Shown: positions 23,501 through 64,000, counted from the stretch's first letter. The stretch: DNA of 64,000 nt from Paludibaculum fermentans (GCF_015277775.1 NZ_CP063849.1:6773501-6837500); one strand, 5' to 3'. The notes: generated by a model from the sequence alone, not told the origin. Program-made: numbers and translations.

Positions 23501-26500
23501 GCGCCACCGCCTTTGACGGCACCACTTTCAATGTCCCGGGCACCGGCACTGGAATCAACCCCGGCTGGTCGGCCGTGGACGCGTTCCATTTCACCTATCA
23601 GGCCCTGACGGGGGACGGTCAGATTGTGACCAGGCTCATCAGTAAGCCGGGCGGTACGGCCGGACTGATGATTCGAGAGAACCTCCTGGCCAGTTCCAAG
23701 AATGTGGCCCTTCTGGTGGACAACGGTAACTCCGGTATCGTGTCCTTCCGCGCGACCACGGGCGGGAATCCAGGGGGGACCTCACTCGGCTCCATGCCGG
23801 CGCCGCGGTGGCTCAAGCTAACCAGGGTTGGTTCCACGATCAGCGCCTTTGTGTCAACGAATGGTGTCGATTGGACGGCGGCTGGAACGCCTCAAACCTT
23901 CGCATTGGCGGCAACAGCCTACTTCGGCTTGGCCGCGGCAACTCCTGAATCAATTTCAGTGGCAACCGCGAACTTCGACAGCGTCACTCTCACTGGCGTG
24001 CCTGCCCTGCAGCTCAGCGCAGCCCCCTCGACGACGACGATCGTCAGTGGCGGGACCGCCGCATACAACATCGCAGTGACGGGGCTGAACGGAGCAACCG
24101 CTCCAGTCTCCTTCTCCGTTGCCGGACTGCCCGCGGGAGCGAGCGCCAGCTTTAGCCCGGCCATCGTGACTCCCGGATTTTCCTCTGTTCTCACAGTTGC
24201 CCTCGGCGCGGGAACTCCAGTCGGGACATCAACACTAACCATTACCGCCGTCAGTGGGCCACTAACCCAAACGGCCTCAGTCACGTTGGTGGTCTCCGCT
24301 AATGGCTTCCAATTGACAGCGAATCCCGGCAGCAGAACCGCCTCTCCAGGCGGACAGGCCGGCTACAGCGTACTGGCGCAGGCTGTTGGTAGCTTTACGA
24401 GCACTGTGACTTTCTCCGCGGTGGGCCTTCCTCCCGGAGTCAGTGCTGCGTTCTCCCCACTCACCGTTAACGGCTCAGGGCTTAGTACGCTCACCGTGAC
24501 GGCCGCGACGACAGTTGCCGCGGGCTCCTATCCCTTCACGGTTCAGGCGACGGGCGGGACCATCACTCAGTCGGTGCCCATCACGTTGGTGGTCAGCAGT
24601 ACACCCGACTTCACTCTCAACACACCGGCTCCAAGCCGGACGGCACGGCCAGGTACCATTGTCGACATCCCGCTCTCCGTGGAAGCCTTCAATGGCTTCA
24701 ACGGCACGGTAAACCTCTCTGTCACAGGGCCTCCAGCCGGCTCAACTGTAGCCTTCCTCCCCCCTTCCGTGATCGGAGCGGGTAACTCCGTTCTCAGCAT
24801 CGGTGTCCCCTCTGACGCCCCCGCGGCCATCTTCCCGCTCATCATCCAAGGCGTGAACGGATCCTCGACCCGCCGTCTGGACGTGGTGCTCACCCTGTCG
24901 GCGAACTCCGACTACACCCTCGGTCTCTCTCCCTCCACGTTGAATCTCGCCACAGGTGCCAGTGCGACCTATACCGTCACCGTCGGCTCCACAAATGGGT
25001 TCTCCGGGACGGTGCAGCTCAGCGCGGTCGGCCTTCCGGAAGGCCTCACCGCCACCTTCTCCCCTGCCTCCGTAACACCGCCGGCGACAGCCACTTTGAC
25101 CCTCCAGGCCGCAGCCGCGGCGCCTGCCGGATTGACCAGCTTCTCCGTTCTCGGTCAAAGTGGCAGCCTGCAAAGAACCGGCCAGGCCTCCGTCCAAGTC
25201 TCAACGGCAGCCGACTTTGCCCTCAGCGTTCTGCCTGCATCGCAGATCGCGGCGCAGAGCGGCGCGGCTTACTTTGCAGTGACCACCGCAGCCAGCGGCG
25301 GGTTCCAGGGCAACGTCACGTTCCAGGCCACGGGCGCACCCTCTGGCTCAGCTGTCACGTTTGATCCCCCCAGCGTATCCGGCAGTGGCTCCACCACCAT
25401 GCGCGTCCCCATCCCCTCCGGGGCGGCCGCGCAGGACTACACTCTCACCGTCACCGCCACTGGTGGCGGCCGTACCCATACGGCGCCGGCGATCCTGCAG
25501 GTGAAGACCGCCAGCAGCTACGAAGCCGAAGCCAGCGGCAATGTGCTCACCGGCACGGCAGCCGTGGCCGCGTGTACAACCTGTTCCGCCCTCGCCCGGG
25601 TAGACAATGTGGGCGCGAATCCTGCCGGAGGTGTGGGCAGCCTCACCTTTACCAACGTAAGTGCCGCCACGGCAGGCCGCTACGCCATGGCCGTCTACTA
25701 CTCCAGTGCCAACCGGGCCGCCACAGCCCTGAATATCTCGATCAATGGGACAGGCGGAACTATGTCGGTTCTCGCCTCTCCGACCGGCGGCCTCGACCGG
25801 CTCGCCGTCGTCACGCGCGAGATCACTCTGAACTCCGGCAGCAACACCATCCTCTTCTCTAACGTCTCCGGTCCCGCCGTCTCCATTGACCGCATCACTT
25901 TGATCAATACAGCGGAGTGCTCGCCAGGACCCGCCGACGTCATGATCGTGATCGACCGCTCCGGCTCCATGCTCGGGTCTCCCATGACCAGCGTCAAATC
26001 CGCCGCGAAGTCCTTCGTCGACCTGCTGAACGTGGGCGTCGACCAGGCCGGACTCGTATCGTTCAATACCACCTCCACCCTCGACCAGATGCTCACCACC
26101 AACGGTGCCCTGGTGAAGACGAAGATCGACGCGGTCGTCGCCAATGGCGGCACCTACATCGGCTCCGGCATTGCGGGCGCGAATACCGAACTGGCCAGTG
26201 CGCGTCACAATGCCTCGGCCGCCAAGATCATCGTCCTGCTGACGGATGGCGTCGACAGCCCGCCGAACTCCGGCACCGTCACGGCCGCCAACGCCGCCAA
26301 GGCGGCTGGCACCCGGCTCATCGCCATCGGCTACGGCAATGGCGTGGATACCGCGTTCCTGCAGCAACTCGCTTCGTCGCCGTCCGACTACTACGCTGCG
26401 CCTACAACCGAACAGATCGGCGCTGTCTACAGATCCATCGCTACCTCCATCTGCCGGGCTCCGAACGCAGCCCCGTCCGTCAGCGCCGGTCCCAGCATGG

Positions 26501-29500
26501 CCGTGAGTTCCGGGCAAAGTGTCAAGCTGGTCGGCGCGATCGCCGACGACGGATTGCCGTCGCCTGGAACCCTCACCGTGCAATGGAGCCGGCAGAGCGG
26601 CCCCGGCACTCTGACGTTCGTGAACTCCACTGCCGCGGTCACCGATGCCACCTTCAGCGCCGCCGGCACCTACGTCGTCCGCCTGACCGTCAGCGACGGC
26701 GAATTCAGCGCCTACTCCGACACCACCATCACCGTCATGTCGGGCAGCCTCGACATGTTCGAGGCGGAATCCGTCCAAAGCGTCCTCACCGGCGGGGCGG
26801 TGACCGTCCCCTGCGCCGCGTGCTCCGGCGGCTTCCGGGTGGAGAATCTGGGCAGCAACGGCGGCAGCCAGGCCGGCGCCCTCACCTTCAACATCAACGT
26901 CCCGGCCAAGGGCTACTACACCCTCAATACCTACTACACCAACGGCGACACCAAGGCGCGCACCGCGATGGTCAGCGTCAACAGTGACAACACCGGCCGC
27001 AGCTTCACCGGCCCGCCCACGGGTGGCTGGAACACCGTTGCCTCCGCGACAATGACCGTCTATCTCCAGGCGGGGAACAACCAGATCGCCTTCAGCAATC
27101 CGAATGGGGCAGGACCGTCCATCGACCGGATCGAAGTCCTCTTCGTCGCGGATCCCGTCTGCACGCCCGGTGGCCTGGATGTCGTTCTGGTGCTCGATCG
27201 CTCCGGTTCGATGTCCGGACAACCGCTAGCCGATGTGAAGTCGGCCGCCAAGCTCTTCCTGAACCAGTTGAACTGGGTCCTGGACGGCATGGGCGTGGTC
27301 GCCTTCAATGCTGGCGCCACTCTCCAGAGCCCACTCACCCACGACGGCAACGCCGCCAAGATCGGCGTGGACAGTATGGTTGCCGCCGGCGACACCTCCT
27401 TCGCCCCGGCCCTGGCCATGGCGAGAGCGCAATTGACCGGCAGCGGCCACACCGCCGGAGCCTCGCCCCTGCTGATTCTTCTCACCGACGGGCAGAACCA
27501 GGACCGCACCGAGACGGATACCGAAATCGCTGCCGTCAAGGCGGCTGGCATCCGGGTCATCACCATCAGCTTCGGCAACACCGACATCCCGTATCTTCAG
27601 TCCCTGGCGTCCTCCGCTTCCGATGCCTATGTGACCGCCGCCAACGGAGACATCAGCGGAGTCTATCAGGCGATTGCCCAGAGCCTTTGCCGCCTGACCA
27701 ATCAGCCCCCGCAGGTCTACGCGGGCGCCGATCAGACCGTCCAGCAGAACCAGGCAGCCACCCTCCAGGGCGTGGTCACCGATGACGGCCTGCCGCTCCA
27801 ATCGGTGCTGACCTTCCGTTGGTCCGTCATCAGCGGACCTGGTGCCGTCGTCTTCACGGCGCCGACCGCCCTCACCACGGCGGCAACCTTTGGAGCGCCC
27901 GGTATCTACCAGCTTCAGTTGAGCGGCTCGGACGGTCCGTATACCAGCACCAGCACGGTGCGGGTCAACGTCGCGCCGTCAACGGCCCTCTACACCCTCA
28001 CCCTGTCGCCCGGCGCGGCCGGTCCGAATCTCGCAGGCACCTCGCAGAGTGTCAAGGCGACGTTGAAGGACACTTCCGGTGCGCTCGTCAGTGGCGCCAC
28101 GGTTCAGTTCGCCATCCAGGGTGCCAACGCCACCACTGGTTCGGCCACTACGGATACCCAAGGCCAGGCAACCTACACTTGGACCGGTACAAATCGCGGC
28201 TTGGATACCATTCAAGCCAGCGCTTTCTCCAGCGCCTTCTCCAACGCAGTTCCTGTCAGTTGGCTCTCTCCCGCCAGCCCGATCTCCACCACGCCCGTGC
28301 GCGGACGCTTCTACGTCGGCGTAAACGGCCTCGTGCAGGTGACCTCCGCGCAGCAGTCGGTATTCGAGCGGACTTACCCCACCATCGCCTTCAACCCGAA
28401 AGCCGAGTTAAACCTGATCGGCGGGACACTCGGAGTCTATCCGTGGACGATCACCGGCGTAGTGACTGACCCGGCCAATCAATTCATTGGCGTAATCCCG
28501 GCCTCTGGCAATGGGTACGAGGCGCGAGTGGGCCCCCTGTGGGCCTTCAACGCCGTGTTCACGGGCCAGTTCCTCGTCACCACGCCCGGCGACTATTCCA
28601 TCAAGATCGCTTCGAAGGAAGGCATGATCCTGGGCGTGGCAGGCGGCGCGCAACGCGTCTCCGGACCTCAGACCGGCGCCCCGGCCAATGGCCTCTCGCC
28701 CGTGGAATCCTATCCGGTCCTGGCCAGCAACAATGTCATCGCCGACAACGTGTCTGACATGGTGCTCCGCTTCCCGACGGCCGGCATGTACCCTTACGAA
28801 CTCGACTACGCCCAGGCTTCCGGTTGGGCGACCCTCTCGATGAGCTACCTCAGCGGAGCCGCCCAGGTGATCGTGCCGCCCGCTGCCTACGTGAAGATCT
28901 TCCCGAACGCTGCCGCCACGCACAACCCAGGCGAGTCGCAGACTGTCAGCGTCGTGGCCCTCGACAACGCCGGGCGCGCCCTCAGCGGCGTACCGGTGAA
29001 GTTGGTCATCTCCGGTGCGCACGCTGGCCAACAAACCGCGGTCACCGACATCAGTGGCTATGCCAGCTTCACCTACCAGGGAACCAAGGCCGGCGTCGCG
29101 GATCAACTGCAGGCGCAGGTGCAGTACGGGCAGGACTGGCTGGTCTCGCCTGTCCTCATCGTGAACTGGAACAGCCTGCCGAACCATGCTCCAGTCGTGA
29201 CGGCCGGCGACGATCAGACGGCCACCTGGCCCAACACCATCCAGTTGACGGGCACCGCCACCGACGACGGACTACCCACCGGCGGCACTATGACCGTCAC
29301 CTGGTCGAAGGTCAGCGGACCCGGTACCGTCACCTTCGTTACGCCCAACCGGCCCGTCACCACAGCGGGCTTCAGTGAGCCGGGCACCTACCAATTGAAA
29401 CTGTCCGCGACCGACGGAGCACTGACCTCCGAAGCGACCGTCAACATTCTGGTGAATCCGCCCGCCACTGTCTCCGGCGGCTGGATCCTCAGCCCGGCCT

Positions 29501-32500
29501 TCGACGGGAAAGTGACCGGCCAGGCGCCGGTGACCCTGGTGGCGGGCATCACGCTGCAAAGCGGTGTGCTGACCATGTGGCCGGCGTCGGACGAGAATTC
29601 GGTCACAACGCTGAATGCGAACACCGTGGGCACGGGCCCGCTGGCGACCATCGACGCCACGCTCCTGCCCAACGGCGAATACTGGCTCCGCCTGCAGGCC
29701 GTGAACTCCACGGGCGCCGCGCAGGTAAGCCTGGTGCGGTTCTATGCGACCGGTGAATACAAGCCCGGCCGTGTCACCGCGACCGTCACCGACTTCACAG
29801 TCCCCTTGGCCGGCCTGCCCATTCAGATCCAGCGGACCTACGACAGCCTGGAGCGCCAGTTCCAAGGCGACTTTGGCTACGGGTGGAAGTTGGGTGTGAG
29901 TGCGTTGCGGTTCGAGGTGGGCCCCAGCAGCGATGTCACGCTCACCATCAACGGCCAGCGCAAGACGTTCTACTTCACACCGGAAGGCTCGATCTTCGCC
30001 TGGTACACGCCGAAGTACACGGGCGAGCCGGGCTTCTATGGCAGCCTGACTTCGACCGGCGACACCTGCAGCGGCGTACTGCTGCGGACCGGCAATCAAT
30101 GGATCTGCGGCCTGGCCGACGACACTTACAAGTCCACGGGCTGGAAGTACACGGATCCGGCGGGCCGGGAATACACGATCGCCGCCGACAAAACGCTGAC
30201 GTCGCTGAAGGACCTGAACGGCAACATGCTTACGATCGCCGCGGACGGCATCACGTCTTCGGCCGGGAACCTGAAGGTGGCGTTTGTCCGCGACGCGCAG
30301 GGGCGGATCACGAAGATCACTGATCCCTTGGGCAAGCAGTATCTGTACGGCTACAACACGACGGGCGAGTTGACCAGTGTCACTTACCCATCGCTAGCGA
30401 CGCCGTCAGGCTACACCTACGATCCGGGCCATCTTTTAAAGACCGAAACCGACCCGCGAGGCAATGTGGCGGGGACAACGATCTACGACGCGGCGGGCCG
30501 CCTGCAGTCGGTAACAGATGCGGCGGGCAACACAACGCAGTACGCCTACGACATCGCCAATCGCAAGACCACGACCACCAACCCGGACACGGGCGTGGAA
30601 GAGGTGATCAGCGATGCGAACGGCAACGTCTTGAGCCGCAAGGACGGGCTCAATCGCGTCACCACGTATACCTACGACACGAAGAACAATCTAATAACCG
30701 AGACCAACGCGCTCAACCAGACCACCACGAACACCTACGATGCCAACGGCTTCAAGACCTCGGTCAAGAATGCACTGAACGAGACGTCCAGTGCGGTATT
30801 CAACGCCTACGGCGGACCGACATCAATCACGGATCCGCTGAACTTCACGCAGAGCGCGACGTACGACGCAACCTACAACATCAACACGATCAGCGATGCC
30901 CTCGGCCAGGTGGCGCAGTTCTCGTGGAACTCGCACGGACAGCCGCTGACGACGAAGGATGCTCGGGGAAACACGAGCCAGTATCAATATGACGCCTATG
31001 GCAACCGGACCAGCTACACGGATCCGGAGGGCCACACGACGCTGACAGCGTACAACTCGTTCGGGCAGAAGCTGAGCGAGACAGACGCGCGCGGCAATAC
31101 GACGACGTACACCTACGACGACCTCGGCCATATGCTGACGACGACGAACGCCGACAGCAAGGTGACGACGTACGAGTACGATGCCAACGGCAACAAGACG
31201 GCCGAGGTGGATGCGCTGAGCCGGCGGACAACGTTTGAATATGACGCGAAGAACAGGCTGACAAAGACGACATATCCGGATCTGACGTACTCGGAGACCA
31301 CGTACGACTTCCGTGACAAACCGCTCACGGTGCGGGATCAGGGTGGACGGATCACGAAGAACGTCTACGACCAGGCGGGTCAGCTCACCAGCGTGACCCA
31401 TGCGTTCGGAACGGCCGATGCCGCGAAAGTGAGCTACGCCTATGATGATGCGGGCCGCAAGCTGACCGAGACGGACGAGCGGAGCAATACAACTACGTCT
31501 GCCTATGACGCGGCGGGCCGGGTGCTCTCGGTGACCAATGCGCTCGGCAAGGTGACGAGCTTCACCTACGACGCGGCGGGCCGGAAGAAAACGCAGACCG
31601 ATGCGAACACTCACACGACGACTTATGACTACGATGGCCGTGGCCGTCTTGTCACGACGACGTACCCCGACACGAAAACCGTCACGCACACCTACGATGG
31701 CTTGGGCGTGAGGTTGACCACCACGGATCAGGAGAATCGCACCACCACCTGGACGTACGACAAGGCGAGCCGGCTGAAGCAGGTGACGGATGCGCTGAGT
31801 CAGGTGACCACCTACAGCTACGACGCGGCGGGCAACAAGATCAGCCAGACCGACGCCAATAGCCATACAACGACCTACGAGTACGACAAGCTGAACCGGC
31901 GAACGAAGCGGACGCTGCCGCTGGGCCAGTCGGAGACCTTTATCTACGATGCCGTGGGCAACATGGCGACGCGGAAAGACTTCAACGGGAACACGACGAC
32001 GTTCGGGTACGACTCGTTGAACCGGCTGCTGTCAAAGACACCGGACGCGAGCTTCTCCTCTTCGCCGATCACGTTCACCTACACGACGACGGGCAAGCGG
32101 TTGTCGATGGTGGACTGGAGTGGGACTACTGGCTATACGTACGACAATCGCGACCGCCTCTTGACAAGGGCAACGCCACAGGGAACGCTGACCTACACTT
32201 GGCATCCGAATAGTCTGGTGGCCTCTGTGTTCTCATCGAATGTCAACGGGGTGAGCGTGGGGTATGAGTATGACGCGGCGAACAGGCTCCAGACTGTGAC
32301 GGACAACCGGTTGACCAACTCGACGAGTTACGCGTATGACGATGCTGGGAACCTGCTGTCGTTCACGTATCCTAATGGCGTGATCCATACGTTCACCTAC
32401 GACACGACGGACCGGCCGACGAATTTGGCAGTAACCAAGGGCGGCGTGACGCTGGCGAGCTACGCTCAGACGTTCAGCGATGCGGGTCGGAAGCTGACAA

Positions 32501-33408
32501 TGAATGAGAACGGTACTCGATTGGTCAACTACGCCTACGACAACATCTACCGGTTGTTGTCGGAGACGGTTGGGGCCGACTCGCTGGTTTACACGCTTGA
32601 CCCGGTGGGGAACCGGCTGAATCGGACCTCGACGATTCCAAGCTTGCCGACCGTGGGTAGCACGTATGACAAGAATGACCGACTGACGAGCGACACGTAC
32701 GACGCCAACGGGAACACGCTGGCGAGCGGTGGGAACGGTTACGGCTACGACTTCGAGGATCGTCTGACGCGATTCAATGGTGGCGAGGTGACGATGCTCT
32801 ATGACGGAGATGGGAATCGGGTCGCTCGCACGGAGGGAGGCGTGACGACACGGTATCTCGTGGATGAGTTGACGCCAACGGGGTATGCGCAGGTGGCCGA
32901 GGAGGTGCAGATGGGTGCAGTCGTGCGGCGGTATGCGCATGGGGCGCAACGGGTCAGCCAAACGCAGCCGATCAACGGCCAGTGGGTGACTCATTACTAT
33001 GGGTATGATGGCCTTTGGGGATCAGTTCGTCAGTTAACTGATAGTAGTGGCTCAGTTTCGGACAACTATTCCTATGATGCTTATGGAAATCAGGTAAGTC
33101 AAGGTGGGGGGACGCCGAACCTATTTCGTTATCGCGGAGAGGAGCGAGACTCATCGTTCAATCTATATCGCCTTCGCGCCCGGTGGTACGATCCGAAAGT
33201 AAGCGCATTTCTTACGTCGGACACCTTTGAACAGCCGCGCGCCGCCGGACGACAGACGCACAATGCTGTGCCCGGAGTGTGGCCGCCGGTGCGACGGAGA
33301 GTCACCCTGGCGCGTCCTGGAACGTCCGCAAGTTACTGCGGTACTCGACCAGAAACCGTGCGGCCGCCGCACGAAGCGCGTCCGGCCCTGCGGCATGGCG
33401 GTGCGTGA
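17587..33408 (+). CDS. R1: giant secreted multidomain Rhs/YD-repeat protein, native tip lost
   Basis: A 5273-residue protein. Order by residue (rough): signal peptide 1-27; five Ig-like repeats to ~530; six units of a ~185-residue concanavalin-like domain (each starting W-x3-DIG or DVG) plus one Ig-like repeat, to ~2137; five more Ig-like repeats to ~2640; CBM-like 2645-2777; von Willebrand A 2778-2957 with MIDAS DRSGS; PKD; then CBM, vWA (DRSGS) and PKD again to ~3460; Big_1-like, PA14-like, Big_1-like and PKD to ~3960; Rhs N-terminal region; YD repeats ~4250-5140; core ending LRARWYDPKVSAFLTSD. Homology to the other copies stops at nt 33231 (residue 5215); the last 58 residues are read from antisense of a pseudogene. 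Likely an exported, surface-displayed, formerly toxin-carrying shell protein. Confidence 0.85.
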   Translation: MQSRIVAIFLNCLFFVVCAQGWVVNAATFNVAASKQRVTLPPGAQGSLNVAVGKSGSAAFNPVSLSVSGLPTGANATFGATSVSNPASVKLSLSLAANTPEGNYRIQIQGKSGVEVNSDEFRLIVNQRADFSIMAAPQKLLLVQSQGSVTLVVTQALGSDMDVTLNPGTLPTGVTAAFSTPVLSSTGVTQLLLTAAAPPPAPFSLTVKGKSGLLEHSVQVSVESPLADFRLLSPTVAKALKRGSSVRQVISVAPKFGFSEPIRFSASKLPQGVTAAFDPPSLRGAGSTVMTLTTAPAAPSGSSKAQVTAAGDSKTLFTTMDLSVGQPDFDLAATPGSQTIAPGEAFQFSIGVAPNSLFTGPVSLSVSGSPTNGTAVLKDLSLTGESSTVLTVTTTATTPPSTYVLTVTATGSGVTHSASTTVVVSDQPAISLAGQPKTTVLNLGATASVGLNVTAYNNFAGRVDLAVTGLPAGVDASASPAYLTNSGTSTVTFRALQSATPGTYPFTILATTAAETEAFDATLVVTQALGSTWSLSDIGTVTIPGSAGLEPSTSTIHVQASGAGFQNSGDAFYFARQPMTGNGEIVARVTGFLNSNTGSAAGVMIRESLDPTAAQVFLGINPAGAPALYYRLTSAGSVNLISGAVGAIPRWVKLSRNGTSISGFVSTDGVAWTQIGSTLTVPFSSSASVGLAVTAAFDGWWWNSSMVKATFDQVKTPNSPTFQLQTGGSSTISGGSISFPVLVTFTNGFSEAVLLSAAGGPPGATFTFFPSSVSGSATSQMTLSVPPGTAAGSYVVNVTASSASQTRTLNIPVTLGAVGSGWWSGQDVGAISQAGQETLNSSGVYTLQGAGNALRDTSDAFRYLYQPLQGDGEIIARVIAFQNSNSGAIAGVMIRSGLTGTDSYALAGVNPDGTARFHWRTPSGAAPSYMNGAATPLPQWIRLVRIGNQIRGYISSDGAAWLPIGSPKTVTMGATVYIGLVVCGNSSLAQAQFDNVRIASANDFLLQPTGAVISSGGVAQHTVRVSMLAGFTGSVTLAASGGPAGTTYSFQPSVLTGSADAVLTMTAPSAATVGSFNVTVTGTSGAITRVATIPVVLTDQGTRWWTGSDIGTVIQSGTDSVTSAGVFSVRGAGAGFQTGGDGARLLSQPMTGDGEVVARLTAMTGTDQNPYGGVSIRSSVAPEAAMASMIVRPDGRNWFCYRLTAGTNAPCVEGTQSPLPRWVKVVRVGNVLSGFTSSNGTTWSQAGTSMTVQLDVTALAGLSMFSGPYPSTGTFDHVSITSTGLFQLRVSPTAVMSGTDVSHQITVLAGPAFTEQVSFAVSGAPTGATAQVTPLTLTGGGTATLLVSPGTATAGRYVLTVTATAASGSQTAQVAVTIPNPVVAPWTASDVGTTGLAGSSLANAGTFTLKGAGGGVDGGWSGSDAFHYVYQPLLANGQIVARLVTSPAGQAGLMIRESLEANSRNVAIFVDSGYKVSLGYRTVSGGNPGGAQVMNTSLPRWLKLVRINGTVTAYVSPDGLDWTIGGAPVALSTAQPAYIGLFVASGSGSQTQTATFDNISIATNQDFLISTGKSGTVSGSTVTYPVSAVPLLGFTGNVTLAAAGLPAGVTAAFSPASVAFTETSAAAVVQLSLTVPPGTTPGVYRIVVSGTSGAVVRTDTVTLLIAGSGSQLWSSADIGQTAIAGQVTYAGSAVTISGAGSGMDGGWSSTDGFNYIYRPLLGDGEMVARLVSKTGGQAGLMIRESLDDNARNALILIEPNNTLDWRYRAVASGNPGGPPFGTAAPPRWLRIVRIQNSITGYFSTDGLNWVQFAAPMDLSVTQPIYIGLAVSSAGTEPISSAVFDNIAITQSNSFLISAAPGSRVDNLKVSYDLSVIPLSGFSGQVTLSTPGLPAGVTSTFAPATVDLLPTGAAAPSVLTLTAAPGMAAGKYIVRVLAQSGSTSRETALPLIVGGAGTQLWGDLDIGATVTVGATAFDGTTFNVPGTGTGINPGWSAVDAFHFTYQALTGDGQIVTRLISKPGGTAGLMIRENLLASSKNVALLVDNGNSGIVSFRATTGGNPGGTSLGSMPAPRWLKLTRVGSTISAFVSTNGVDWTAAGTPQTFALAATAYFGLAAATPESISVATANFDSVTLTGVPALQLSAAPSTTTIVSGGTAAYNIAVTGLNGATAPVSFSVAGLPAGASASFSPAIVTPGFSSVLTVALGAGTPVGTSTLTITAVSGPLTQTASVTLVVSANGFQLTANPGSRTASPGGQAGYSVLAQAVGSFTSTVTFSAVGLPPGVSAAFSPLTVNGSGLSTLTVTAATTVAAGSYPFTVQATGGTITQSVPITLVVSSTPDFTLNTPAPSRTARPGTIVDIPLSVEAFNGFNGTVNLSVTGPPAGSTVAFLPPSVIGAGNSVLSIGVPSDAPAAIFPLIIQGVNGSSTRRLDVVLTLSANSDYTLGLSPSTLNLATGASATYTVTVGSTNGFSGTVQLSAVGLPEGLTATFSPASVTPPATATLTLQAAAAAPAGLTSFSVLGQSGSLQRTGQASVQVSTAADFALSVLPASQIAAQSGAAYFAVTTAASGGFQGNVTFQATGAPSGSAVTFDPPSVSGSGSTTMRVPIPSGAAAQDYTLTVTATGGGRTHTAPAILQVKTASSYEAEASGNVLTGTAAVAACTTCSALARVDNVGANPAGGVGSLTFTNVSAATAGRYAMAVYYSSANRAATALNISINGTGGTMSVLASPTGGLDRLAVVTREITLNSGSNTILFSNVSGPAVSIDRITLINTAECSPGPADVMIVIDRSGSMLGSPMTSVKSAAKSFVDLLNVGVDQAGLVSFNTTSTLDQMLTTNGALVKTKIDAVVANGGTYIGSGIAGANTELASARHNASAAKIIVLLTDGVDSPPNSGTVTAANAAKAAGTRLIAIGYGNGVDTAFLQQLASSPSDYYAAPTTEQIGAVYRSIATSICRAPNAAPSVSAGPSMAVSSGQSVKLVGAIADDGLPSPGTLTVQWSRQSGPGTLTFVNSTAAVTDATFSAAGTYVVRLTVSDGEFSAYSDTTITVMSGSLDMFEAESVQSVLTGGAVTVPCAACSGGFRVENLGSNGGSQAGALTFNINVPAKGYYTLNTYYTNGDTKARTAMVSVNSDNTGRSFTGPPTGGWNTVASATMTVYLQAGNNQIAFSNPNGAGPSIDRIEVLFVADPVCTPGGLDVVLVLDRSGSMSGQPLADVKSAAKLFLNQLNWVLDGMGVVAFNAGATLQSPLTHDGNAAKIGVDSMVAAGDTSFAPALAMARAQLTGSGHTAGASPLLILLTDGQNQDRTETDTEIAAVKAAGIRVITISFGNTDIPYLQSLASSASDAYVTAANGDISGVYQAIAQSLCRLTNQPPQVYAGADQTVQQNQAATLQGVVTDDGLPLQSVLTFRWSVISGPGAVVFTAPTALTTAATFGAPGIYQLQLSGSDGPYTSTSTVRVNVAPSTALYTLTLSPGAAGPNLAGTSQSVKATLKDTSGALVSGATVQFAIQGANATTGSATTDTQGQATYTWTGTNRGLDTIQASAFSSAFSNAVPVSWLSPASPISTTPVRGRFYVGVNGLVQVTSAQQSVFERTYPTIAFNPKAELNLIGGTLGVYPWTITGVVTDPANQFIGVIPASGNGYEARVGPLWAFNAVFTGQFLVTTPGDYSIKIASKEGMILGVAGGAQRVSGPQTGAPANGLSPVESYPVLASNNVIADNVSDMVLRFPTAGMYPYELDYAQASGWATLSMSYLSGAAQVIVPPAAYVKIFPNAAATHNPGESQTVSVVALDNAGRALSGVPVKLVISGAHAGQQTAVTDISGYASFTYQGTKAGVADQLQAQVQYGQDWLVSPVLIVNWNSLPNHAPVVTAGDDQTATWPNTIQLTGTATDDGLPTGGTMTVTWSKVSGPGTVTFVTPNRPVTTAGFSEPGTYQLKLSATDGALTSEATVNILVNPPATVSGGWILSPAFDGKVTGQAPVTLVAGITLQSGVLTMWPASDENSVTTLNANTVGTGPLATIDATLLPNGEYWLRLQAVNSTGAAQVSLVRFYATGEYKPGRVTATVTDFTVPLAGLPIQIQRTYDSLERQFQGDFGYGWKLGVSALRFEVGPSSDVTLTINGQRKTFYFTPEGSIFAWYTPKYTGEPGFYGSLTSTGDTCSGVLLRTGNQWICGLADDTYKSTGWKYTDPAGREYTIAADKTLTSLKDLNGNMLTIAADGITSSAGNLKVAFVRDAQGRITKITDPLGKQYLYGYNTTGELTSVTYPSLATPSGYTYDPGHLLKTETDPRGNVAGTTIYDAAGRLQSVTDAAGNTTQYAYDIANRKTTTTNPDTGVEEVISDANGNVLSRKDGLNRVTTYTYDTKNNLITETNALNQTTTNTYDANGFKTSVKNALNETSSAVFNAYGGPTSITDPLNFTQSATYDATYNINTISDALGQVAQFSWNSHGQPLTTKDARGNTSQYQYDAYGNRTSYTDPEGHTTLTAYNSFGQKLSETDARGNTTTYTYDDLGHMLTTTNADSKVTTYEYDANGNKTAEVDALSRRTTFEYDAKNRLTKTTYPDLTYSETTYDFRDKPLTVRDQGGRITKNVYDQAGQLTSVTHAFGTADAAKVSYAYDDAGRKLTETDERSNTTTSAYDAAGRVLSVTNALGKVTSFTYDAAGRKKTQTDANTHTTTYDYDGRGRLVTTTYPDTKTVTHTYDGLGVRLTTTDQENRTTTWTYDKASRLKQVTDALSQVTTYSYDAAGNKISQTDANSHTTTYEYDKLNRRTKRTLPLGQSETFIYDAVGNMATRKDFNGNTTTFGYDSLNRLLSKTPDASFSSSPITFTYTTTGKRLSMVDWSGTTGYTYDNRDRLLTRATPQGTLTYTWHPNSLVASVFSSNVNGVSVGYEYDAANRLQTVTDNRLTNSTSYAYDDAGNLLSFTYPNGVIHTFTYDTTDRPTNLAVTKGGVTLASYAQTFSDAGRKLTMNENGTRLVNYAYDNIYRLLSETVGADSLVYTLDPVGNRLNRTSTIPSLPTVGSTYDKNDRLTSDTYDANGNTLASGGNGYGYDFEDRLTRFNGGEVTMLYDGDGNRVARTEGGVTTRYLVDELTPTGYAQVAEEVQMGAVVRRYAHGAQRVSQTQPINGQWVTHYYGYDGLWGSVRQLTDSSGSVSDNYSYDAYGNQVSQGGGTPNLFRYRGEERDSSFNLYRLRARWYDPKVSAFLTSDTFEQPRAAGRQTHNAVPGVWPPVRRRVTLARPGTSASYCGTRPETVRPPHEARPALRHGGA
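30604..33231 (+). repeat. Direct repeat, copy 1 (2,628 bp) inside R1
   Basis: This stretch is apparently identical to 48053-50680 in R5, offset exactly 17,449. I compared many blocks along it and found no mismatch; even the antisense ORFs repeat at this offset. The left end is the last mismatch in a diverged segment; the right end coincides with the break where R1 loses its tip. Confidence 0.9.
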
Positions 33409-33916
33409 AAATCGGGTGACGCCCAGAAGTCGATCTCGGCGGCCGAAAGGTGGACTCGCAGATCCGGACGCAGCCGGTTCTTCATGCCGTCAACGAGCAG
33501 CCCGCCAATATGGTCCATGTGCATGTGGGTCAGCACCACGTCCGTAACGGAGGCAAGATCGATGCCGGCGGACTCTAACCGCTGGATCAGCCGCCCGGCC
33601 TGCGGCAAGTGCAAATCCGGGTCCGCCCCGACCGGCGTCGGTCTGATCGCCACTACGCACCACAACGGCGTTCAGCGGCCAATCGAATGTGTCCGGCATG
33701 TCGCGCTGCCAGGCGGCGCGGGCGGCCGCGTTGGTAGTCATGGTGATGGCGGAGATCGGCAAGACCCCCACCACCAGCACCTCAATCTCGCCGACCTTCA
33801 CCGCATAGCGCGACGGCACCAAGTCATCGGACGCCTGTCTGCGGAGCGCGAGGTGTCAAACTCACGCTCTTATCCTTCTGTTGAGCAGTCTCAACAGCCA
33901 ACATTGTGTTCTTCAT
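33232..33916 (-). pseudogene. Decayed metallo-beta-lactamase-fold hydrolase, truncated at its 3' end
   Basis: Read from the ATG at 33916-33914, which has a perfect AGGAGG 7 bases upstream. The family sequence continues only by changing frame several times: MKNTMLAVETAQQ in one frame; RYAVKVGEIEVLVVGVLPIS and TFDWPLNAVVVRSGDQ in a second; AGRLIQRLESAGIDLASVTD and the metal-binding HMHMDHIGG in a third; then VEYRSNLRTF, RRTGGHTPG and GHSIVRLSSGGARL in others. It stops abruptly at 33231 where Rhs sequence begins on the opposite strand. At least four indels make it non-functional. Its upstream region (to 33982) matches the right end of the window, suggesting an intact parent just beyond 64000. 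Confidence 0.85.
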
Positions 33917-33952
33917 GTAAGAACCTCCTGAGCATTGCAACTGTGTCGCCGT

Positions 33953-33982
33953 AGCACGCTGTGGAAGCGGGAACGGAGGGCC
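33953..33982 (-). repeat. 30-bp inverted match to the right end of the window
   Basis: These 30 bases upstream of the metallo-beta-lactamase pseudogene are the exact reverse complement of 63971-64000. Identity ends at 33982/63971 on the outer side and is cut by the window edge on the other, so the true match is probably longer. Confidence 0.9.
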
Positions 33983-33995
33983 GAAGGCAACCCGT

Positions 33996-34898
33996 GGCTG
34001 GATCCTCAGCCCGGCCTTCGACGGCAAAGTGACCGGCCAGGCGCCGGTGACCCTGGTGGCCGGCATCACGCTGCAAAGCGGTGTGCTGACCATGTGGCCG
34101 GCGTCGGACGAGAATTCGGTCACCACGCTGAATGCGAGCACCGTGGGCACAGGCCCGCTGGCGACCATCGACGCCACGCTCCTGCCCAACGGCGAATACT
34201 GGCTCCGCCTGCAGGCCGTGAACTCCACGGGCGCCGCGCAGGTGAGCCTGGTGCGGTTCTATGCGACCGGGGAATACAAGCCCGGCCGTGTCACCGCGAC
34301 CGTCACCGACTTCACAGTCCCCTTGGCCGGCCTGCCCATTCAGATCCAGCGCACCTACGACAGCCTGGAGCGCCAGTTCCAAGGCGACTTTGGCTACGGC
34401 TGGAAGCTGGGTGTGAGTGCGTTGCGGTTCGAGGTGGGCCCCAGCAGCGATGTGACGCTCACCATCAACGGCCAGCGCAAGACGTTCTACTTCACACCGG
34501 AAGGCTCGATCTTTGCCTGGTACACGCCGAAGTACACGGGCGAGCCGGGTTTCTATGGCAGCCTGACTTCGACCGGCGACACCTGCAGCGGCGTACTGCT
34601 GCGGACCGGGAATCAATGGATCTGCGGTCTGGCCGACGACACTTACAAGTCCACGGGCTGGAAGTACACGGATCCGGCGGGCCGGGAATACACGATCGCC
34701 GCCGACAAAACGCTGACGTCGCTGAAGGATCTGAACGGCAACACGCTCACGATCGCCGCCGACGGCATCACGTCTTCGGCCGGGAACCTGAAGGTGGCGT
34801 TTGTCCGCGACGCGCAGGGGCGGATCACGAAGATCACTGATCCCTTGGGCAAGCAGTATCTGTACGGCTACAACACGAACACCACGGCGGCGAGTTGA
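33996..34898 (+). pseudogene. R2, 5' piece: truncated Rhs copy ending in a frameshift
   Basis: Rhs sequence resumes at about 33996, at the point equivalent to nt 29478 of R1, with no start codon, ribosome site or signal peptide. It encodes the PKD-to-Rhs linker and Rhs N-terminal region (LAGLPIQIQRTYDSLE, then the TDPAGREYTIAAD block). Near 34879 the sequence differs from all other copies by a net 8-base insertion, which shifts the frame and ends translation at 34898. A 6-base in-frame deletion follows. The downstream ORF (34895) overlaps it by 4 bases. Confidence 0.8.
34152..34878 (+). repeat. 727-bp block shared by R2 and R6, copy 1
   Basis: It appears identical to 52604-53330 at an offset of 18,452, by eye. 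It ends exactly where the R2 frameshift insertion begins. Confidence 0.8.
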
Positions 34899-37800
34899 CC
34901 AGTTACCCATCGCTAGCGACGCCGTCAGGCTACACCTACGATCCGGGCCATCTTTTAAAGACCGAAACCGACCCGCGAGGCAATGTGGCGGGGACAACGA
35001 TCTACGACGCGGCGGGCCGCCTGCAGTCGGTAACAGATGCGGCGGGCAACACAACGCAGTACGCCTACGACATCGCCAATCGCAAAACCACGACGACCAA
35101 CCCGGACACGGGCGTGGAAGAGGTGATCAGCGACGCCAACGGCAATGTCCTGAGCCGCAAGGACGGGCTCAATCGCGTCACCACCTTTACCTACGACACG
35201 AAGAACAATCTCCTAACCGAGACCAACGCCCTGAACCAGACCACAACAAATACCTACGACGCCAACGGCTTCAAGACCTCGGTCAAGAATGCGCTGAACG
35301 AGACGTCCAGCACGGTATTCAACGCCTATGGGGGTCCGACGTCGGTCACGAATCCGCTGAACTTCACGCAGAGCGTGACGTACGACGCAACCTACAACAT
35401 CAACACCATCAGCGATGCGCTCGGCCAGGTGGCGCAGTTCTCGTGGAACTCACACGGCCAGCCGCTGACGATGAAGGACGCTCGGGGAAACACGAGCCAG
35501 TATCAATATGACGCCTATGGCAACCGGACGAGCTACACGGATCCGGAAGGCCACACGACGTTGTCCACCTACAACTCGTTCGGGCAGAAGCTGAGCGAGA
35601 CGGACCCGCGCGGCAACACAACCACCTACACCTACGACGACCTCGGCCATGTGCTGACGATGACGAACGCCGATGGCAAGACGACGACGTATGAGTACGA
35701 TGCCAACGGAAACAAGACGGCCGAGGTGGATGCGCTCAGCCGGCGGACGACATTCGAATATGACGCCAAGAACCGGCTGACGAAGACAACGTATCCCGAT
35801 CTGACATACACGGAGACCACGTATGACTTCCGTGACAAACCGCTGACGTTACGGGACCAGGGCGGCCGGATCACGAAGAACATCTACGACAAGGCGGGTC
35901 AGCTCACCAGCGTGACCTATGCCTTTGGAACAGCCGACGCCGGAACGGTGAGCTACACCTACGACGACGCGGGCCGGAAACTGGCCGAGACGGACGAGCG
36001 GAATCACACGACGACGTCCGCCTATGACGCGGCGGGCCGGGTGCTGTCAGTGACCAACGCGCTCGGCAAGGTGACGAGCTTCACCTACGACGCGGCGGGC
36101 CGGAAGAAGACGCAGACCGACGCGAACAACCACACGACGACTTATGACTATGATGGCCGCGGCCGCCTCGTCACGACGACCTATCCCGACACGAAAACCG
36201 TCACGCACACCTACGATGGCTTGGGCGTGAGGTTGACCACCACGGATCAGGAGAATCGCACCACCACCTGGACGTACGACAAGGCGAGCCGGCTTAGGCA
36301 GGTGACGGACGCGCTGAGCCAGTTGACCACCTACGGCTACGACGCGGCGGGCAACAAAGTCAGCCAAACCGACGCCAATAGCCATACGACGAACTACGAG
36401 TACGACAAGCTGAACCGGCGAACGAAGCGGACGCTGCCGCTAGGACAGTCGGAGACCTTTACCTACGATGCCGTCGGGAACATGGCGACGCGGAAAGACT
36501 TCAATGGGAAGACAACGACGTTCGGGTACGACTCGTTGAATCGGCTGCTGTCGAAGACGCCCGACGCGAGCTTCGCTGCTTCGCCGATCACATTTACCCA
36601 TACGGCGACGGGCAAGCGGCAGTCAATGTCAGATCCGAGTGGCACGACGAACTACACGTATGACGCTCGAGATCGTTTGCTGATAAAGGCTACACCGCAG
36701 GGAACGCTTTCGTATAGCTACGATGCGACCGGAAACCTCTCTTCTCTATCCTCTTCGAATACCAATGGAGCCTCAGTATCGTACGATTGGGATGCTGTGA
36801 ACAGGCTACTTGCGGTAGTGGATCATCGCCTGCCGCTAGGCCACAACACGACATCCTATAGCTATGATTCAGCTCGTAATGTTGTGACTGTGACATACCC
36901 CCACGGCTTGACTTCGGCACTCGCCTACGATGGTTTGAATCGGATGAAGTCAATCAATGCTTACGAATATGAGATCGGGCCTCTCGGTAACCCTCAGAGC
37001 GCAACCGAGCCCAACGGCCGGAAACTAAGTTGGACTTACGACGGCGTCCACAGGCTGAAGAGCGAGACCATTAGTTCGGATCCTCGGGGTAAGAATGGAT
37101 CGGTGGATTACACCTTCGACGCTGTAGGCAATCGTCTCTCCCAGGATTCTACGCTGCCTGGCATCTTGACCGGCGCGCTCACCTATGATGCGAATGACCA
37201 GCTTTCGACCGAGCAACAAGACAACAATGGAAACATTATCCAATCTGGCTCCCGAAACTTTGCCTATGACTTTGAGAACCAGCTGAAGTCGATGAGCAGC
37301 GGTGCGGTTGCTCTGCAATACGATGCAGACGGCAACCTTGTAGAGAAAACTGTCGGTGGTGTGATCACGCGGTATTTAGTGGACGATCTAAACCCGACAG
37401 GATATGCTCAGGTTGTAGAGGAGTCCATTGGCATCGGTGCCACACGTCGCTATGCCCTGGGTCTCCAGCGCATCAGTCAGGAACAATTGGTCAACGGTGC
37501 ATGGATTTCCACTTTCTACGGCTACGATGGATTCGGCAGTGTGCGAATCCTGACCGACTCGGCAGGTGCCGTGACGGACTCATACGATTACGATGCCTGG
37601 GGTAATGCAATAAGCCTTACAGGCTTCACCTCCAATTCGTATCTGTATCGGGGGGAGCAGTACGATTCTGATCTGAACCTCTATTATCTGCGCGCCCGTT
37701 GGTATAATCCCGTCACGGGTAGGTTTTTGTCAATTGATCCGGCTGAAGGTATGCGAGCGGACCCGCGAACTATTCATAGATACATTTATGCCGGAGGTGA

Positions 37801-38056
37801 TCCAATAGGTAAAGTAGATCCCACTGGAAAAGACTTCATCGACCGAGCTATGCTTGTCGGCGTATTTCTTGTTACCTATAAGATACCCGAAAGGGTTGTA
37901 GTGCTTGCTGAGAAAGTTTGCCGATCATGGAAATGGGTTGATGTTGTGTTAACTGTGTCGAATGCTGTAGAGGCAAATAATGGAAATCCCGTTCCAGGGA
38001 CTCCTAAGGATATTAATGATGCCGTTAAGAATTTCTGCAAGGCTATGGGTTATTAA
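34895..38056 (+). CDS. R2: orphan Rhs cassette with tip T2
   Basis: A 1053-residue open frame starting at TTG (MTSYPSLATPSGYTYDPGH) that carries YD repeats (GRLxxxTDxxGxxTxYxYD type) to about residue 890 and then an Rhs core (YLYRGEQYDSDLNLYYLRAR, followed by DPTG at nt 37818). Up to about nt 36700 it is close to R1; the last third of the core (36700-37830) is clearly more diverged and lower in G+C, pointing to a separate origin for the 3' part. There is no signal peptide, so as it stands it would not be exported; it may be silent or a donor for recombination with R1. A candidate immunity gene follows after 136 bases. Confidence 0.75.
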   Translation: MTSYPSLATPSGYTYDPGHLLKTETDPRGNVAGTTIYDAAGRLQSVTDAAGNTTQYAYDIANRKTTTTNPDTGVEEVISDANGNVLSRKDGLNRVTTFTYDTKNNLLTETNALNQTTTNTYDANGFKTSVKNALNETSSTVFNAYGGPTSVTNPLNFTQSVTYDATYNINTISDALGQVAQFSWNSHGQPLTMKDARGNTSQYQYDAYGNRTSYTDPEGHTTLSTYNSFGQKLSETDPRGNTTTYTYDDLGHVLTMTNADGKTTTYEYDANGNKTAEVDALSRRTTFEYDAKNRLTKTTYPDLTYTETTYDFRDKPLTLRDQGGRITKNIYDKAGQLTSVTYAFGTADAGTVSYTYDDAGRKLAETDERNHTTTSAYDAAGRVLSVTNALGKVTSFTYDAAGRKKTQTDANNHTTTYDYDGRGRLVTTTYPDTKTVTHTYDGLGVRLTTTDQENRTTTWTYDKASRLRQVTDALSQLTTYGYDAAGNKVSQTDANSHTTNYEYDKLNRRTKRTLPLGQSETFTYDAVGNMATRKDFNGKTTTFGYDSLNRLLSKTPDASFAASPITFTHTATGKRQSMSDPSGTTNYTYDARDRLLIKATPQGTLSYSYDATGNLSSLSSSNTNGASVSYDWDAVNRLLAVVDHRLPLGHNTTSYSYDSARNVVTVTYPHGLTSALAYDGLNRMKSINAYEYEIGPLGNPQSATEPNGRKLSWTYDGVHRLKSETISSDPRGKNGSVDYTFDAVGNRLSQDSTLPGILTGALTYDANDQLSTEQQDNNGNIIQSGSRNFAYDFENQLKSMSSGAVALQYDADGNLVEKTVGGVITRYLVDDLNPTGYAQVVEESIGIGATRRYALGLQRISQEQLVNGAWISTFYGYDGFGSVRILTDSAGAVTDSYDYDAWGNAISLTGFTSNSYLYRGEQYDSDLNLYYLRARWYNPVTGRFLSIDPAEGMRADPRTIHRYIYAGGDPIGKVDPTGKDFIDRAMLVGVFLVTYKIPERVVVLAEKVCRSWKWVDVVLTVSNAVEANNGNPVPGTPKDINDAVKNFCKAMGY
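37829..38056 (+). other. Tip T2: 75-residue hydrophobic two-Cys C-terminus of R2
   Basis: The segment after DPTG starts KDFIDRAMLV and has cysteines at tip residues 31 and 70, with a hydrophobic stretch around VDVVLTVSNAV and a TPKDI motif before the second cysteine. It shares the start motif and cysteine layout with T3 and T4. I recognise no toxin family. Confidence 0.6.
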
Positions 38057-38192
38057 GGGCGAATCGGTTGTAGACCCCCGTGAGCAATCTGGACCACTAC
38101 TTACCAGCTCCTGAAGTGGGAATGTGCTGAGGTGGTATACTGGATGCCGTGGGCTCTGAAGTTGAAATCTGACTGTCGTCGCGATAAAAAAT

Positions 38193-38867: not shown

Positions 38868-38973
38868 AGCCATGCGCACGAGTTGACTGGGACGCCCTTC
38901 AGTCTGAACCGTCCCGCCGCGAATCACCAAAACCTGGCATCCAATTGGCGCTAATCACCAAGAAGCTGAGCCG

Positions 38974-41900
38974 ATGCAGCCATCTTCTTCTCTTAAGATG
39001 CCGCCGTTCGAACATCCACTGAACCCAGAATGGCTACCCCAATCCGCCGAGAAGGCCTGGCTCTGCGCCATATCCCACAAAGAGGACAAGGGCGTCTGCA
39101 ATCAGGAAGGGGAAACCCCCATTGGGACGGGTGCGCCCGTACCGAACATTCTTGCCCCCGCACCAGCCGTGCACACACCGGAAGGCTCGATCTTCGCCTG
39201 GTACACGCCGAAGTACACAGGCGAACCTGGTTTCTATGGCAGCCTGACTTCGACCGGCGACACCTGCAGCGGCGTACTGCTGCGGACCGGGAATCAATGG
39301 ATCTGCGGCTTGGCCGACGACACTTACAAGTCCACGGGCTGGAAGTACACGGATCCGGCGGGCCGGGAATACACGATCGCCGCCGACAAAACGCTGACGT
39401 CGCTGAAGGACCTGAACGGCAACACGCTCACGATCGCCGCGGACGGCATCACGTCTTCGGCCGGGAACCTGAAGGTGGCGTTTGTCCGCGACGCGCAGGG
39501 GCGGATCACGAAGATCACTGATCCCTTGGGCAAGCAATATCTGTACGGCTACAACACGACGGGCGAGTTGACCAGTGTCACTTACCCGTCGCTAGTGACG
39601 CCGTCCGGCTACACCTACGATCCGGGCCATCTGCTGAAGACCGAAACCGACCCGAGAGGCAATGTGGCGGGGACGACGATCTACGACGCCGCGGGCCGCC
39701 TGCAGTCGGTGACCGATGCGGTGGGCAACACGACGCAGTATGCCTACGACGTGGCCAATCGCAAGACCACGACAACCAACCCGGACACAGGCGTGGAAGA
39801 GGTGATCAGCGACGCCAACGGCAATGTGTTGAGCCGCAAGGACGGGCTCAATCGCGTCACCACCTACACCTACGACACGAAGAACAATCTCCTAACGGAG
39901 ACCAACGCCCTCAACCAGACCACAACGAATGCCTACGACGCCAACGGCTTCAAGACCTCGGTCAAGAATGCACTGAACGAGACGTCCAGTGCGGTGTTCA
40001 ATGCCTACGGGGGGCCGACGTCGGTCACGAATCCGCTGAACTTCACGCAGAGCGTGACGTACGACGCAACCTACAACATCAACACGATCAGCGACTCGAT
40101 CGGCCAGGTGGCGCAGTTCTCGTGGAACTCGCACGGCCAGCCGCTGACGATGAAGGACGCTCGGGGCAATACGAGCCAGTATCAATATGACTCTTATGGC
40201 AACCGGACGAGCTACACGGATCCGGAAGGCCACACGACGCTGTCCACCTACAACTCGTTCGGGCAGAAGCTGAGCGAGACGGACCCGCGCGGCAACACAA
40301 CCACCTACACCTACGACGACCTCGGCCATGTGTTGACGATGACGAATGCCGACGGCAAAACGACAACCTATGAGTACGATGCCAACGGCAACAAGACGGC
40401 CGAGGTGGACGCGCTCAGCCGGCGGACGACGTTCGAGTACGACGCCAAGAACCGGCTGACGAAGGCAACCTATCCGGATCTGACATACACGGAGACCACC
40501 TACGACTTCCGGGACAAGCCGCTGACGGTAAGGGACCAGGGCGGCCGGATCACGAAGAATCTCTATGACAAGGCGGGTCAGCTCACCAGCGTGACCTATG
40601 CCTTTGGAACGGCCGACGCCGGAACGGTGAGCTACACCTACGACGACGCGGGTCGGAAGCTGACCGAGACGGACGAGCGGAATCACACAACGACGTCCGC
40701 CTATGATGCGGCGGGCCGGGTGCAATCGGTGACCAACGCGCTCGGCAAGGTGACGAGCTTCACCTACGACGCGGCGGGCCGGAAGAGGACGCAGACCGAC
40801 GCGAACAATCACGTGACGACCTATGACTACGATGGCCGCGGCCGTCTGGTCACGACGACGTACCCCGACACGAAGACCGTCACGCACACCTACGATGGTC
40901 TCGGCGTGAGGTTGACCACCACGGATCAGGAGAATCGCACCACCACGTGGAGCTACGACAAGGCAAGCCGGCTGAAGCAGGTGACGGACGCCCTGAGTCA
41001 AGTGACCACCTACGGCTATGACGCGGCGGGCAACAAGATCAGCCAGACCGACGCCAACAGCCACACGACGACGTATGAGTACGACAAGCTGAACCGGCGA
41101 ACGAAGCGGACGCTGCCGCTGGGCCAGTCTGAAACCTTTACCTACGATGCCGTAGGAAACATGGCGACGCGGAAAGACTTCAACGGGAAGACGACGACGT
41201 TCGGGTACGACTCGTTGAACCGGCTGCTGTCGAAGACGCCGGACGCGAGCTTTGCCGCGTCGCCGATCACGTTCACCTACACAGCGACGGGCAAGCGGTT
41301 GTCGATGGTGGACCCGAGTGGGACGACTGGCTACACGTACGACAGTCGGGATCGCTTGTTGACGAAGGCTACGCCCCAGGGGACGCTGACTTACACTTGG
41401 CATCCGAATAGTCTGGTGGCCTCTGTGTTCTCATCGAATGCCAACGGGGTGAGCGTCGGGTATGAGTATGACGCGGCGAACCGGCTCCAGACTGTGACGG
41501 ACAATCGGTTGACCAACTCTACGAGTTACGCGTATGACGATGCTGGGAACCTGCAGTCGTTCACGTATCCTAATGGCGTGGTCCATACCTTCAGCTACGA
41601 CGCGACCGACAGGCCGACGAGCCTGGCAGTGACCAAGGGCGGCGTGACGCAGGCAAGTTACGCGCAAACCTTCAGCGACGCGGGTCGGAAGCTGACGGTG
41701 AACGAGAACGGGACGCGGCTGGTCAACTACGCCTACGATAATATCTACCGATTGCTGTCGGAGACGATCGGGGCGGATTCGCTGGTGTACACGCTGGATC
41801 CCGTCGGCAACCGGTTGAACCGGGCCTCTACGATTCCCAGCCTGCCGACCGTGGGCAGTACTTATGACAGCAATGACCGGCTGACGAGCGACACCTACGA

Positions 41901-42741: not shown

Positions 42742-42753
42742 GATGGTATTTTC

Positions 42754-43173
42754 ATGAAAATCGCGCGGGCGAAGCTTGACGTGCTGACAATCTGGCTGAA
42801 TCGCCCAACATCGGCAATGCCCTATCTGGCGCAGACGTGTGCGTTTCTGGTACTTTCGGAGCGTGTCTCGCTTAGGCTGAAGGATCAACTCGATTCCAGT
42901 CCCTTTGGGTCACTTTCTTCTGGGGCGTTAACCTCCGGCTTGGCATGCTTGATTGGGATCCTCTTCCTAATGGCTATTGCCAATGCGCATGGGCGATTTC
43001 GAGCCATTGGCTGTGATCGCTGGTACATGTATTTGGCAGTTGGTGCCTTGGCTGTTGTTGCTGACGCACTTATGCTATTGACAGTGGATAAGCGCAGGAT
43101 CGCGTATCTTGTCTTCTTGATCCCCCAGTTGCCGTTGTTTGTGGGTTGGCGAGCACATCGTTCAGAAAGATGA
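42754..43173 (+). CDS. Small membrane protein, candidate immunity partner of T3
   Basis: A 139-residue protein with about four hydrophobic segments (near 22-35, 58-77, 91-107 and 115-130). Between helices 2 and 3 it has HGRFRAIGCDRW, which matches the R-x-R-x-IG motif of the T4 partner and recalls the RLHDIG signature of DUF805 membrane proteins; that assignment is tentative. It starts 12 bases after R3, so coupled translation is likely. Its stop (43171-43173) falls 4 bases before R4 homology begins, so the join to R4 is exactly at the gene end. Its low G+C matches the T3 tip, not the core. Confidence 0.6.
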   Translation: MKIARAKLDVLTIWLNRPTSAMPYLAQTCAFLVLSERVSLRLKDQLDSSPFGSLSSGALTSGLACLIGILFLMAIANAHGRFRAIGCDRWYMYLAVGALAVVADALMLLTVDKRRIAYLVFLIPQLPLFVGWRAHRSER

Positions 43174-45724: not shown

Positions 45725-45785
45725 TTCATGTCGCAATGACGGATAATAATCAGGGGCTGTCGTTGGGTCGTCAAGGAGGGCGTTC

Positions 45786-51226: not shown

Positions 51227-51238
51227 AGGAGCGCGACA

Positions 51239-63970: not shown

Positions 63971-64000
63971 GGCCCTCCGTTCCCGCTTCCACAGCGTGCT
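63971..64000 (+). repeat. Start of sequence duplicated (inverted) in the Rhs island
   Basis: Exact reverse complement of 33953-33982. In the island this sequence lies 37-66 bases before the start codon of the metallo-beta-lactamase pseudogene, so here an intact plus-strand copy would start near position 64036, outside the window. Confidence 0.85.

What the first reader, a model, noticed from the sequence alone, without database searches (positions are those of the whole stretch)
33200..33420. R1 is decapitated: its reading frame runs into an antisense pseudogene
Seen: R1 matches R5 up to 33231, then continues 58 codons over the opposite strand of a metallo-beta-lactamase-fold remnant and stops at 33408. 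The core end and DPSG motif present in R5 are missing. Inference: R1 now makes a toxinless, possibly structural, protein, or is in an inactive state of a switch.
Basis: seen in the sequence. Interest (0 to 1): 0.6.

Follow-up and report, generated by a model that had tools for sequence, protein, structure and literature searches.

The report
Truncated Rhs gene: probably assembly gap-fill
A giant bacterial gene seems to lose its business end where it runs into a broken backwards gene, but that broken stretch looks like an uncorrected noisy Nanopore read used to plug an assembly gap, so the break cannot be trusted until the raw reads are checked.

Summary
In the deposited sequence the description is accurate. 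R1 (17587-33408) matches R5 exactly up to 33231, reads 58 more codons antisense to a metallo-beta-lactamase-fold (MBL) gene, and stops at 33408. Its Rhs-associated core domain is cut at profile position 53 of 76, and the DPxG motif is lost.

The interpretation rests on unreliable sequence. The "pseudogene" (33232-33982) is a copy of an intact MBL gene 30.7 kb away. Across 809 aligned bases it has 14 short deletions, 1 substitution and no insertions. All five homopolymer runs of 4 or more bases are touched. Other repeats in the same genome show about 6 mismatches per indel.

Contig sizes match Paludibaculum fermentans P105, a genome closed by joining 454 contigs with npScarf and filling gaps with corrected R9.4 Nanopore reads. 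An unpolished gap fill explains the deletions. R1 and R5 are also identical for the 2628 bp before the junction after 4% divergence, as expected if one collapsed repeat contig was placed twice.

Whether R1 really lacks a tip is therefore undetermined. The decayed pseudogene and its peptide are probably artefacts. The surrounding Rhs tip array looks real and is of a known kind.

The parts
17587..33408 (+). R1, frame of 5273 aa: hydrophobic start, extracellular-type domains, C-terminal RHS/YD repeats; last 58 codons (33232-33405) lie over the MBL copy
30604..33231 (+). last 2628 bp of R1 before the junction, 100% identical to R5 48053-50680
33231..33232 (.). junction between the Rhs core and the MBL copy; no shared bases beyond 0-1
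33232..33982 (-). inverted partial copy of the MBL-fold gene: 14 deletions (58 bases), 1 substitution, 0 insertions against the intact gene; probable unpolished Nanopore gap fill
33983..33995 (.). 13 bp of unassigned filler between the MBL copy and R2
33996..38056 (+). R2: core copy starting at the position of R1 29479, one frameshift near 34880-34900, own tip with complete core end
38974..42741 (+). R3: core copy from 39174, complete core end, own tip
43139..45724 (+). R4: core copy from 43177, complete core end, own tip
46388..51226 (+). R5: core copy 46418-50680 matching R1, complete core end (DPSG) and own tip
63971..64000 (+). start of the intact MBL copy's homologous stretch; the gene continues past the window (L019 3972-5008)

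Best explanation
The stretch 33232-33982 is a gap between two 454 contigs that was plugged with Nanopore read sequence and not polished. Its 14 deletions are sequencing errors in what should read as an almost perfect copy of the MBL gene, so there is no decayed pseudogene. The 2628-bp block before it, identical to R5, is probably one collapsed 454 repeat contig used for both R1 and R5. R1's true 3' end, including whether a tip follows, therefore cannot be read from this assembly. Shown here: the deletion-only pattern, the homopolymer hits, the identical block, and the published assembly method of a genome with the same contig sizes. Inferred: that this segment is one of the filled gaps, and that the block is a reused contig. 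Left open: whether an inverted MBL fragment really lies behind R1 (then R1 is truly cut short) or whether the bridge itself is wrong.
For: 14 deletions, 1 substitution, 0 insertions in 809 columns; all 5 homopolymer runs of 4 or more bases touched, against 0.77 expected and 0 of 20,000 random placements; the intact gene has no coding indel against relative G006, so the deletions are in the copy; 30 other repeat pairs of the genome total 349 mismatches and 55 gaps, P about 1e-11 for 14 of 15 (pairs partly redundant); neighbouring R2 shows normal substitution-rich divergence; contig lengths 9,476,802 and 55,292 equal those of P. fermentans P105, whose gaps between 454 contigs were filled with Canu-corrected R9.4 reads by npScarf (PMC8407742); npScarf fills gaps with read consensus and overlays repetitive contigs (PMC5321748), can bridge on one read and is prone to misassembly (PMC7850483); repeats that short reads cannot place stay uncorrected (PMC6325685); 0 differences in 2628 bp after 66 in 1635.
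Against: Several deletions are long for Nanopore errors (12, 9, 6, 6 bases). Raw R9.4 reads have substitutions and insertions as often as deletions (PMC7671305), so a consensus step must have removed those. No second segment with this signature was found in 1.29 Mb of the same genome, and nine IS copies are clean. If the MBL fragment were truly repeated, a 454 repeat contig might have been expected to fill the gap. The reads were not examined.
Confidence: 0.85

Rival explanations
1. Junction real, deletions false: an inverted, truncated MBL fragment with essentially intact sequence sits between R1 and R2 after a very recent duplication, so R1 does lack its core end and tip. This is one branch of the best explanation.
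For: Corrected Nanopore reads must contain this order for npScarf to have used it, and average Nanopore depth is about 70x (664 Mb). The locus is rearrangement-prone, with bare core fragments at 52319-53518 and near 67430-67737. The antisense frame of the intact gene ends in the same residues (ALRHGGA), so R1 would end at the same stop either way.
Against: npScarf can bridge on a single read. A real 809-bp exact repeat would be expected to give a 454 repeat contig and so a clean fill.
Confidence: 0.45
2. False bridge: the order R1 - MBL - R2 is a misassembly and R1 continues into a tip not shown here, or into the R5 tip.
For: The 2628-bp identical block ends exactly at the junction. npScarf is prone to misassembly in repeats. 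All four long relatives inspected keep a complete core end, DPxG and tail, and so do R2-R5. A frame-breaking repeated block in a tandem-repeat cytochrome gene suggests other stitching trouble in this assembly.
Against: Two separate junctions (33231/33232 and 33982-33996) would have to come from chimeric or misplaced reads, at about 70x average Nanopore depth.
Confidence: 0.4
3. Genuine decay by a burst of short deletions in a real MBL copy, as the first reader's 'remnant' implies.
For: It is what the deposited bases say; three of the multi-base deletions have 2-3 bases of microhomology.
Against: 14 deletions to 1 substitution is far from the ratio in other repeats of the genome; every long homopolymer is hit.
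Confidence: 0.06
4. R1 is a switchable gene: R1 x R5 recombination over the identical 2.6 kb would remove 33232-50680 and put the R5 tip on R1.
For: Direct orientation and 2628 bp of perfect identity ending where the tips diverge.
Against: The identity may be an assembly product; excision alone is not reversible; no dedicated recombinase or sites were seen, and none were searched for in depth.
Confidence: 0.04

Closest known systems
Unpolished long-read gap fills in hybrid assemblies (npScarf with Canu-corrected R9.4 reads, Pilon with short reads)
   Same: Indels concentrated at homopolymers, in one copy of a repeat, in a genome built by this pipeline
   Different: Some deletions are longer than usual (9 and 12 bases); the reads were not inspected
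Rhs loci with a long first gene followed by displaced core-and-tip fragments (orphan tips; known from enterobacterial rhs loci, own knowledge)
   Same: One long frame followed by R2-R5, each a core fragment with complete core end and its own tip and a small following gene
   Different: In this assembly the long first gene itself has no core end or tip; tips and small partner genes R2-R5 have no Pfam match
Rhs proteins of other acidobacteria (L060, L064, L065, L066)
   Same: 45-53% identity over the core end; long frames; L064 also has a second core-and-tip frame downstream
   Different: All four keep the complete core end, DPxG and a C-terminal tail

Membership tests
RHS/YD-repeat protein (PF05593, TIGR01643) | multiple RHS/YD repeats | tested here: met
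   PF05593 hits inside the R1 frame and in R2-R5; TIGR01643 in R1 and R2-R5
RHS/YD-repeat protein with variable tip | complete Rhs-associated core domain (TIGR03696) followed by a variable tip | tested here: not met
   R1 matches only positions 1-53 of 76 and has no tip in the deposited sequence; R2-R5 meet it. For R1 the sequence itself is in doubt.
Bacterial pseudogene (ordinary decay) | substitutions at least as common as indels, as in other diverged repeats of the genome | tested here: not met
   1 substitution and 14 deletions against 349 and 55 in control pairs
Unpolished Nanopore gap fill | genome built with Nanopore-filled gaps | tested here: met
Unpolished Nanopore gap fill | indels concentrated at homopolymer runs | tested here: met
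   5 of 5 runs of 4 or more bases touched, 0 of 20,000 random placements
Unpolished Nanopore gap fill | accurate reads do not carry the indels; the segment lies between 454 contigs | not testable with these tools
   Reads SRX9395395 and SRX9395396 are named in PMC8407742 but were not available
Metallo-beta-lactamase-fold protein (source of the copy) | PF00753 match in the intact gene | tested here: met
   L019:4052-5005, E 3.9e-27

The most novel reading that the evidence does not exclude
The MBL copy is real and records a burst of short deletions (14 deletions, 1 substitution, no insertions in 809 bp) confined to a duplicated fragment that cut off R1, a mutational signature that ordinary pseudogene decay does not give.
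Probability: 0.05. Interest if true: 0.65.

Novelty: not a real feature. Interest (0 to 1): 0.15.

Why it matters
It stops a biological story (a decapitated Rhs protein with an antisense tail) from being built on probable gap-fill sequence. It also gives a simple check for other 'complete' genomes: a near-identical copy with many short deletions and almost no substitutions, next to a perfectly identical repeat block, marks sequence to be verified before it is interpreted. Rhs arrays, being repeats, are where this will happen most.

Tried and rejected
Ordinary pseudogene decay: rejected on the deletion/substitution ratio. An assembly-wide error problem: not seen; nine IS copies are near-identical without frame breaks, and only 47 putative frame breaks were found in 1.29 Mb. 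A second deletion-laden segment as independent proof: sought by repeat comparison and by a frame-switch scan and not found; the clusters seen were of another kind (L029: frame breaks are 1-base insertions against G006; L165: a repeated block in a tandem-repeat cytochrome gene). A partial second 23S locus: 99.8% identical with no gaps, so not the same signature. The plasmid search found only distant MBL relatives, mostly 70-74% identical in rhizobia. A mobile-element origin of the MBL segment: none of the hits for two transposase families (PF00665, PF01609) lies in the window; not pursued further. The genome-contig scan did not return the window's own genome, so the organism's name rests on exact contig lengths.

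Full report
WHAT IS IN THE SEQUENCE. R1 is one open frame, 17587-33408, 5273 aa. It starts with a hydrophobic stretch, has a VWA domain and other extracellular-type domains in its first 3000 residues, and ends in RHS/YD repeats. Downstream lie R2, R3, R4 and R5, each a fragment of the same core with its own C-terminal tip and a small following gene, and a bare core fragment at 52319-53518. R1 28969-33231 aligns to R5 46418-50680 without a gap and ends at exactly 33231. Beyond it R1 reads 58 codons antisense to an MBL-fold gene and stops at 33408. TIGR03696 is matched only to position 53 of 76 in R1 but to 75 or 76 in R2-R5. Long relatives in other acidobacteria (L060, L064, L065, L066) all have the full core end, DPxG and a tail.

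WHAT THE ANTISENSE SEGMENT IS. 33232-33982 is an inverted copy of an intact MBL-fold gene that begins near the window's right edge and continues past it (PF00753). In relative G006 that gene has the same neighbours and there is no Rhs array beside it, so its place at 63971 is probably ancestral and the copy behind R1 derived. Over 809 aligned columns the copy shows 14 deletions of 1-12 bases, one substitution and no insertion. The intact gene has no indel in its coding part against G006, so the deletions belong to the copy. All five homopolymer runs of four or more bases are touched; random placement touches 0.77 on average and never five in 20,000 trials. Thirty other repeat pairs of this genome have 349 mismatches and 55 gaps together; at that ratio 14 indels among 15 events has P about 1e-11 (the pairs are partly redundant, and even at a ratio of one to one P is 5e-4). 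R2, directly next door, shows ordinary substitution-rich divergence. This is an error signature and not decay.

WHERE IT COMES FROM. The contig lengths of the genome, 9,476,802 and 55,292, equal those published for Paludibaculum fermentans P105. Its announcement says that 126 454 contigs were merged with npScarf, that gaps were filled with trimmed and Canu-corrected R9.4 Nanopore reads, and that Pilon was run with the 454 reads (PMC8407742). npScarf fills a gap with read consensus and then overlays repetitive contigs (PMC5321748); it can bridge on a single read and is prone to misassembly in repeats (PMC7850483). Short reads cannot correct repeats that they cannot place (PMC6325685). A read-quality copy of a gene that has a clean second copy is what this pipeline would leave uncorrected. 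That this particular segment is such a fill is inference; the reads were not available.

THE IDENTICAL BLOCK. R1 and R5 differ at 66 of 1635 positions from 28969 to 30603 and at none of the next 2628, up to the junction. Recent gene conversion could do this. So could one collapsed 454 contig placed in both loci, which is what npScarf does with repeats. In the second case R1's own 3' core has never been resolved, and its match to R5 up to 33231 says little about R1.

WHAT THIS MEANS FOR R1. Two readings survive. In one, an inverted MBL fragment really lies between R1 and R2 and R1 is cut short; its tail would then differ in sequence from the deposited one but end at the same stop, because the antisense frame of the intact gene ends in the same residues. 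In the other, the bridge is false and R1 may have a normal tip. I give these roughly equal weight. A genuine deletion-only pseudogene is the least likely of the three. The structural-protein and switch ideas cannot be judged until this is settled.

LIMITS. Only about 1.3 Mb of the 9.5 Mb genome was scanned for similar segments, and none with the same signature was found. Raw R9.4 reads carry substitutions and insertions as often as deletions (PMC7671305), so the fill must be a corrected read or consensus, which the announcement states; some deletions are still longer than typical. No second strain was available, and the organism's identity rests on exact contig lengths.

VERDICT. The finding as given is most likely an assembly and sequencing artefact laid over an Rhs tip array of a known kind.

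Noticed in passing
window 37900-38867, 42421-43173, 45374-46157, 50681-51859: Tips of R2-R4 are short and hydrophobic and each is followed by a small gene with hydrophobic stretches (224, 139, 123 aa); R5's tip is longer with a 206 aa neighbour. None of the four neighbours, nor the R5 tip, has a Pfam match; they look like tip and partner pairs.
   Followed up: partly
window 52319-53518 and L019 7431-7738 (window coordinates about 67430-67737): Bare Rhs core fragments without tips: 1.2 kb at 95-97% identity to R1 and R5, and about 0.3 kb at 73-75% identity beyond the window, near the intact MBL gene.
   Followed up: partly
G000:C1:5030738-5032500 (L159): A partial second rRNA locus (3' part of 23S onward) 99.8% identical to the only complete one, cut off abruptly; either a real fragment or another stitching product.
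   Followed up: partly
G000:C1:7118500-7120700 (L165 1000-3200): A tandem-repeat multiheme-cytochrome-like gene (CxxCH repeats) holds a near-identical block about 500 bp apart with frame breaks at its edges.
   Followed up: partly
G000:C1:6713750-6714800 (L029): Three frame breaks within about 500 bp of a gene that is uninterrupted in relative G006, each a 1-base insertion; a young pseudogene or 454 homopolymer errors.
   Followed up: partly
G000:C1:4064537-4079708 and 4189029-4208164 (L178, L179): Two further clusters of RHS-repeat frames in the same genome, with repeat units 89-94% identical to each other.
   Followed up: no
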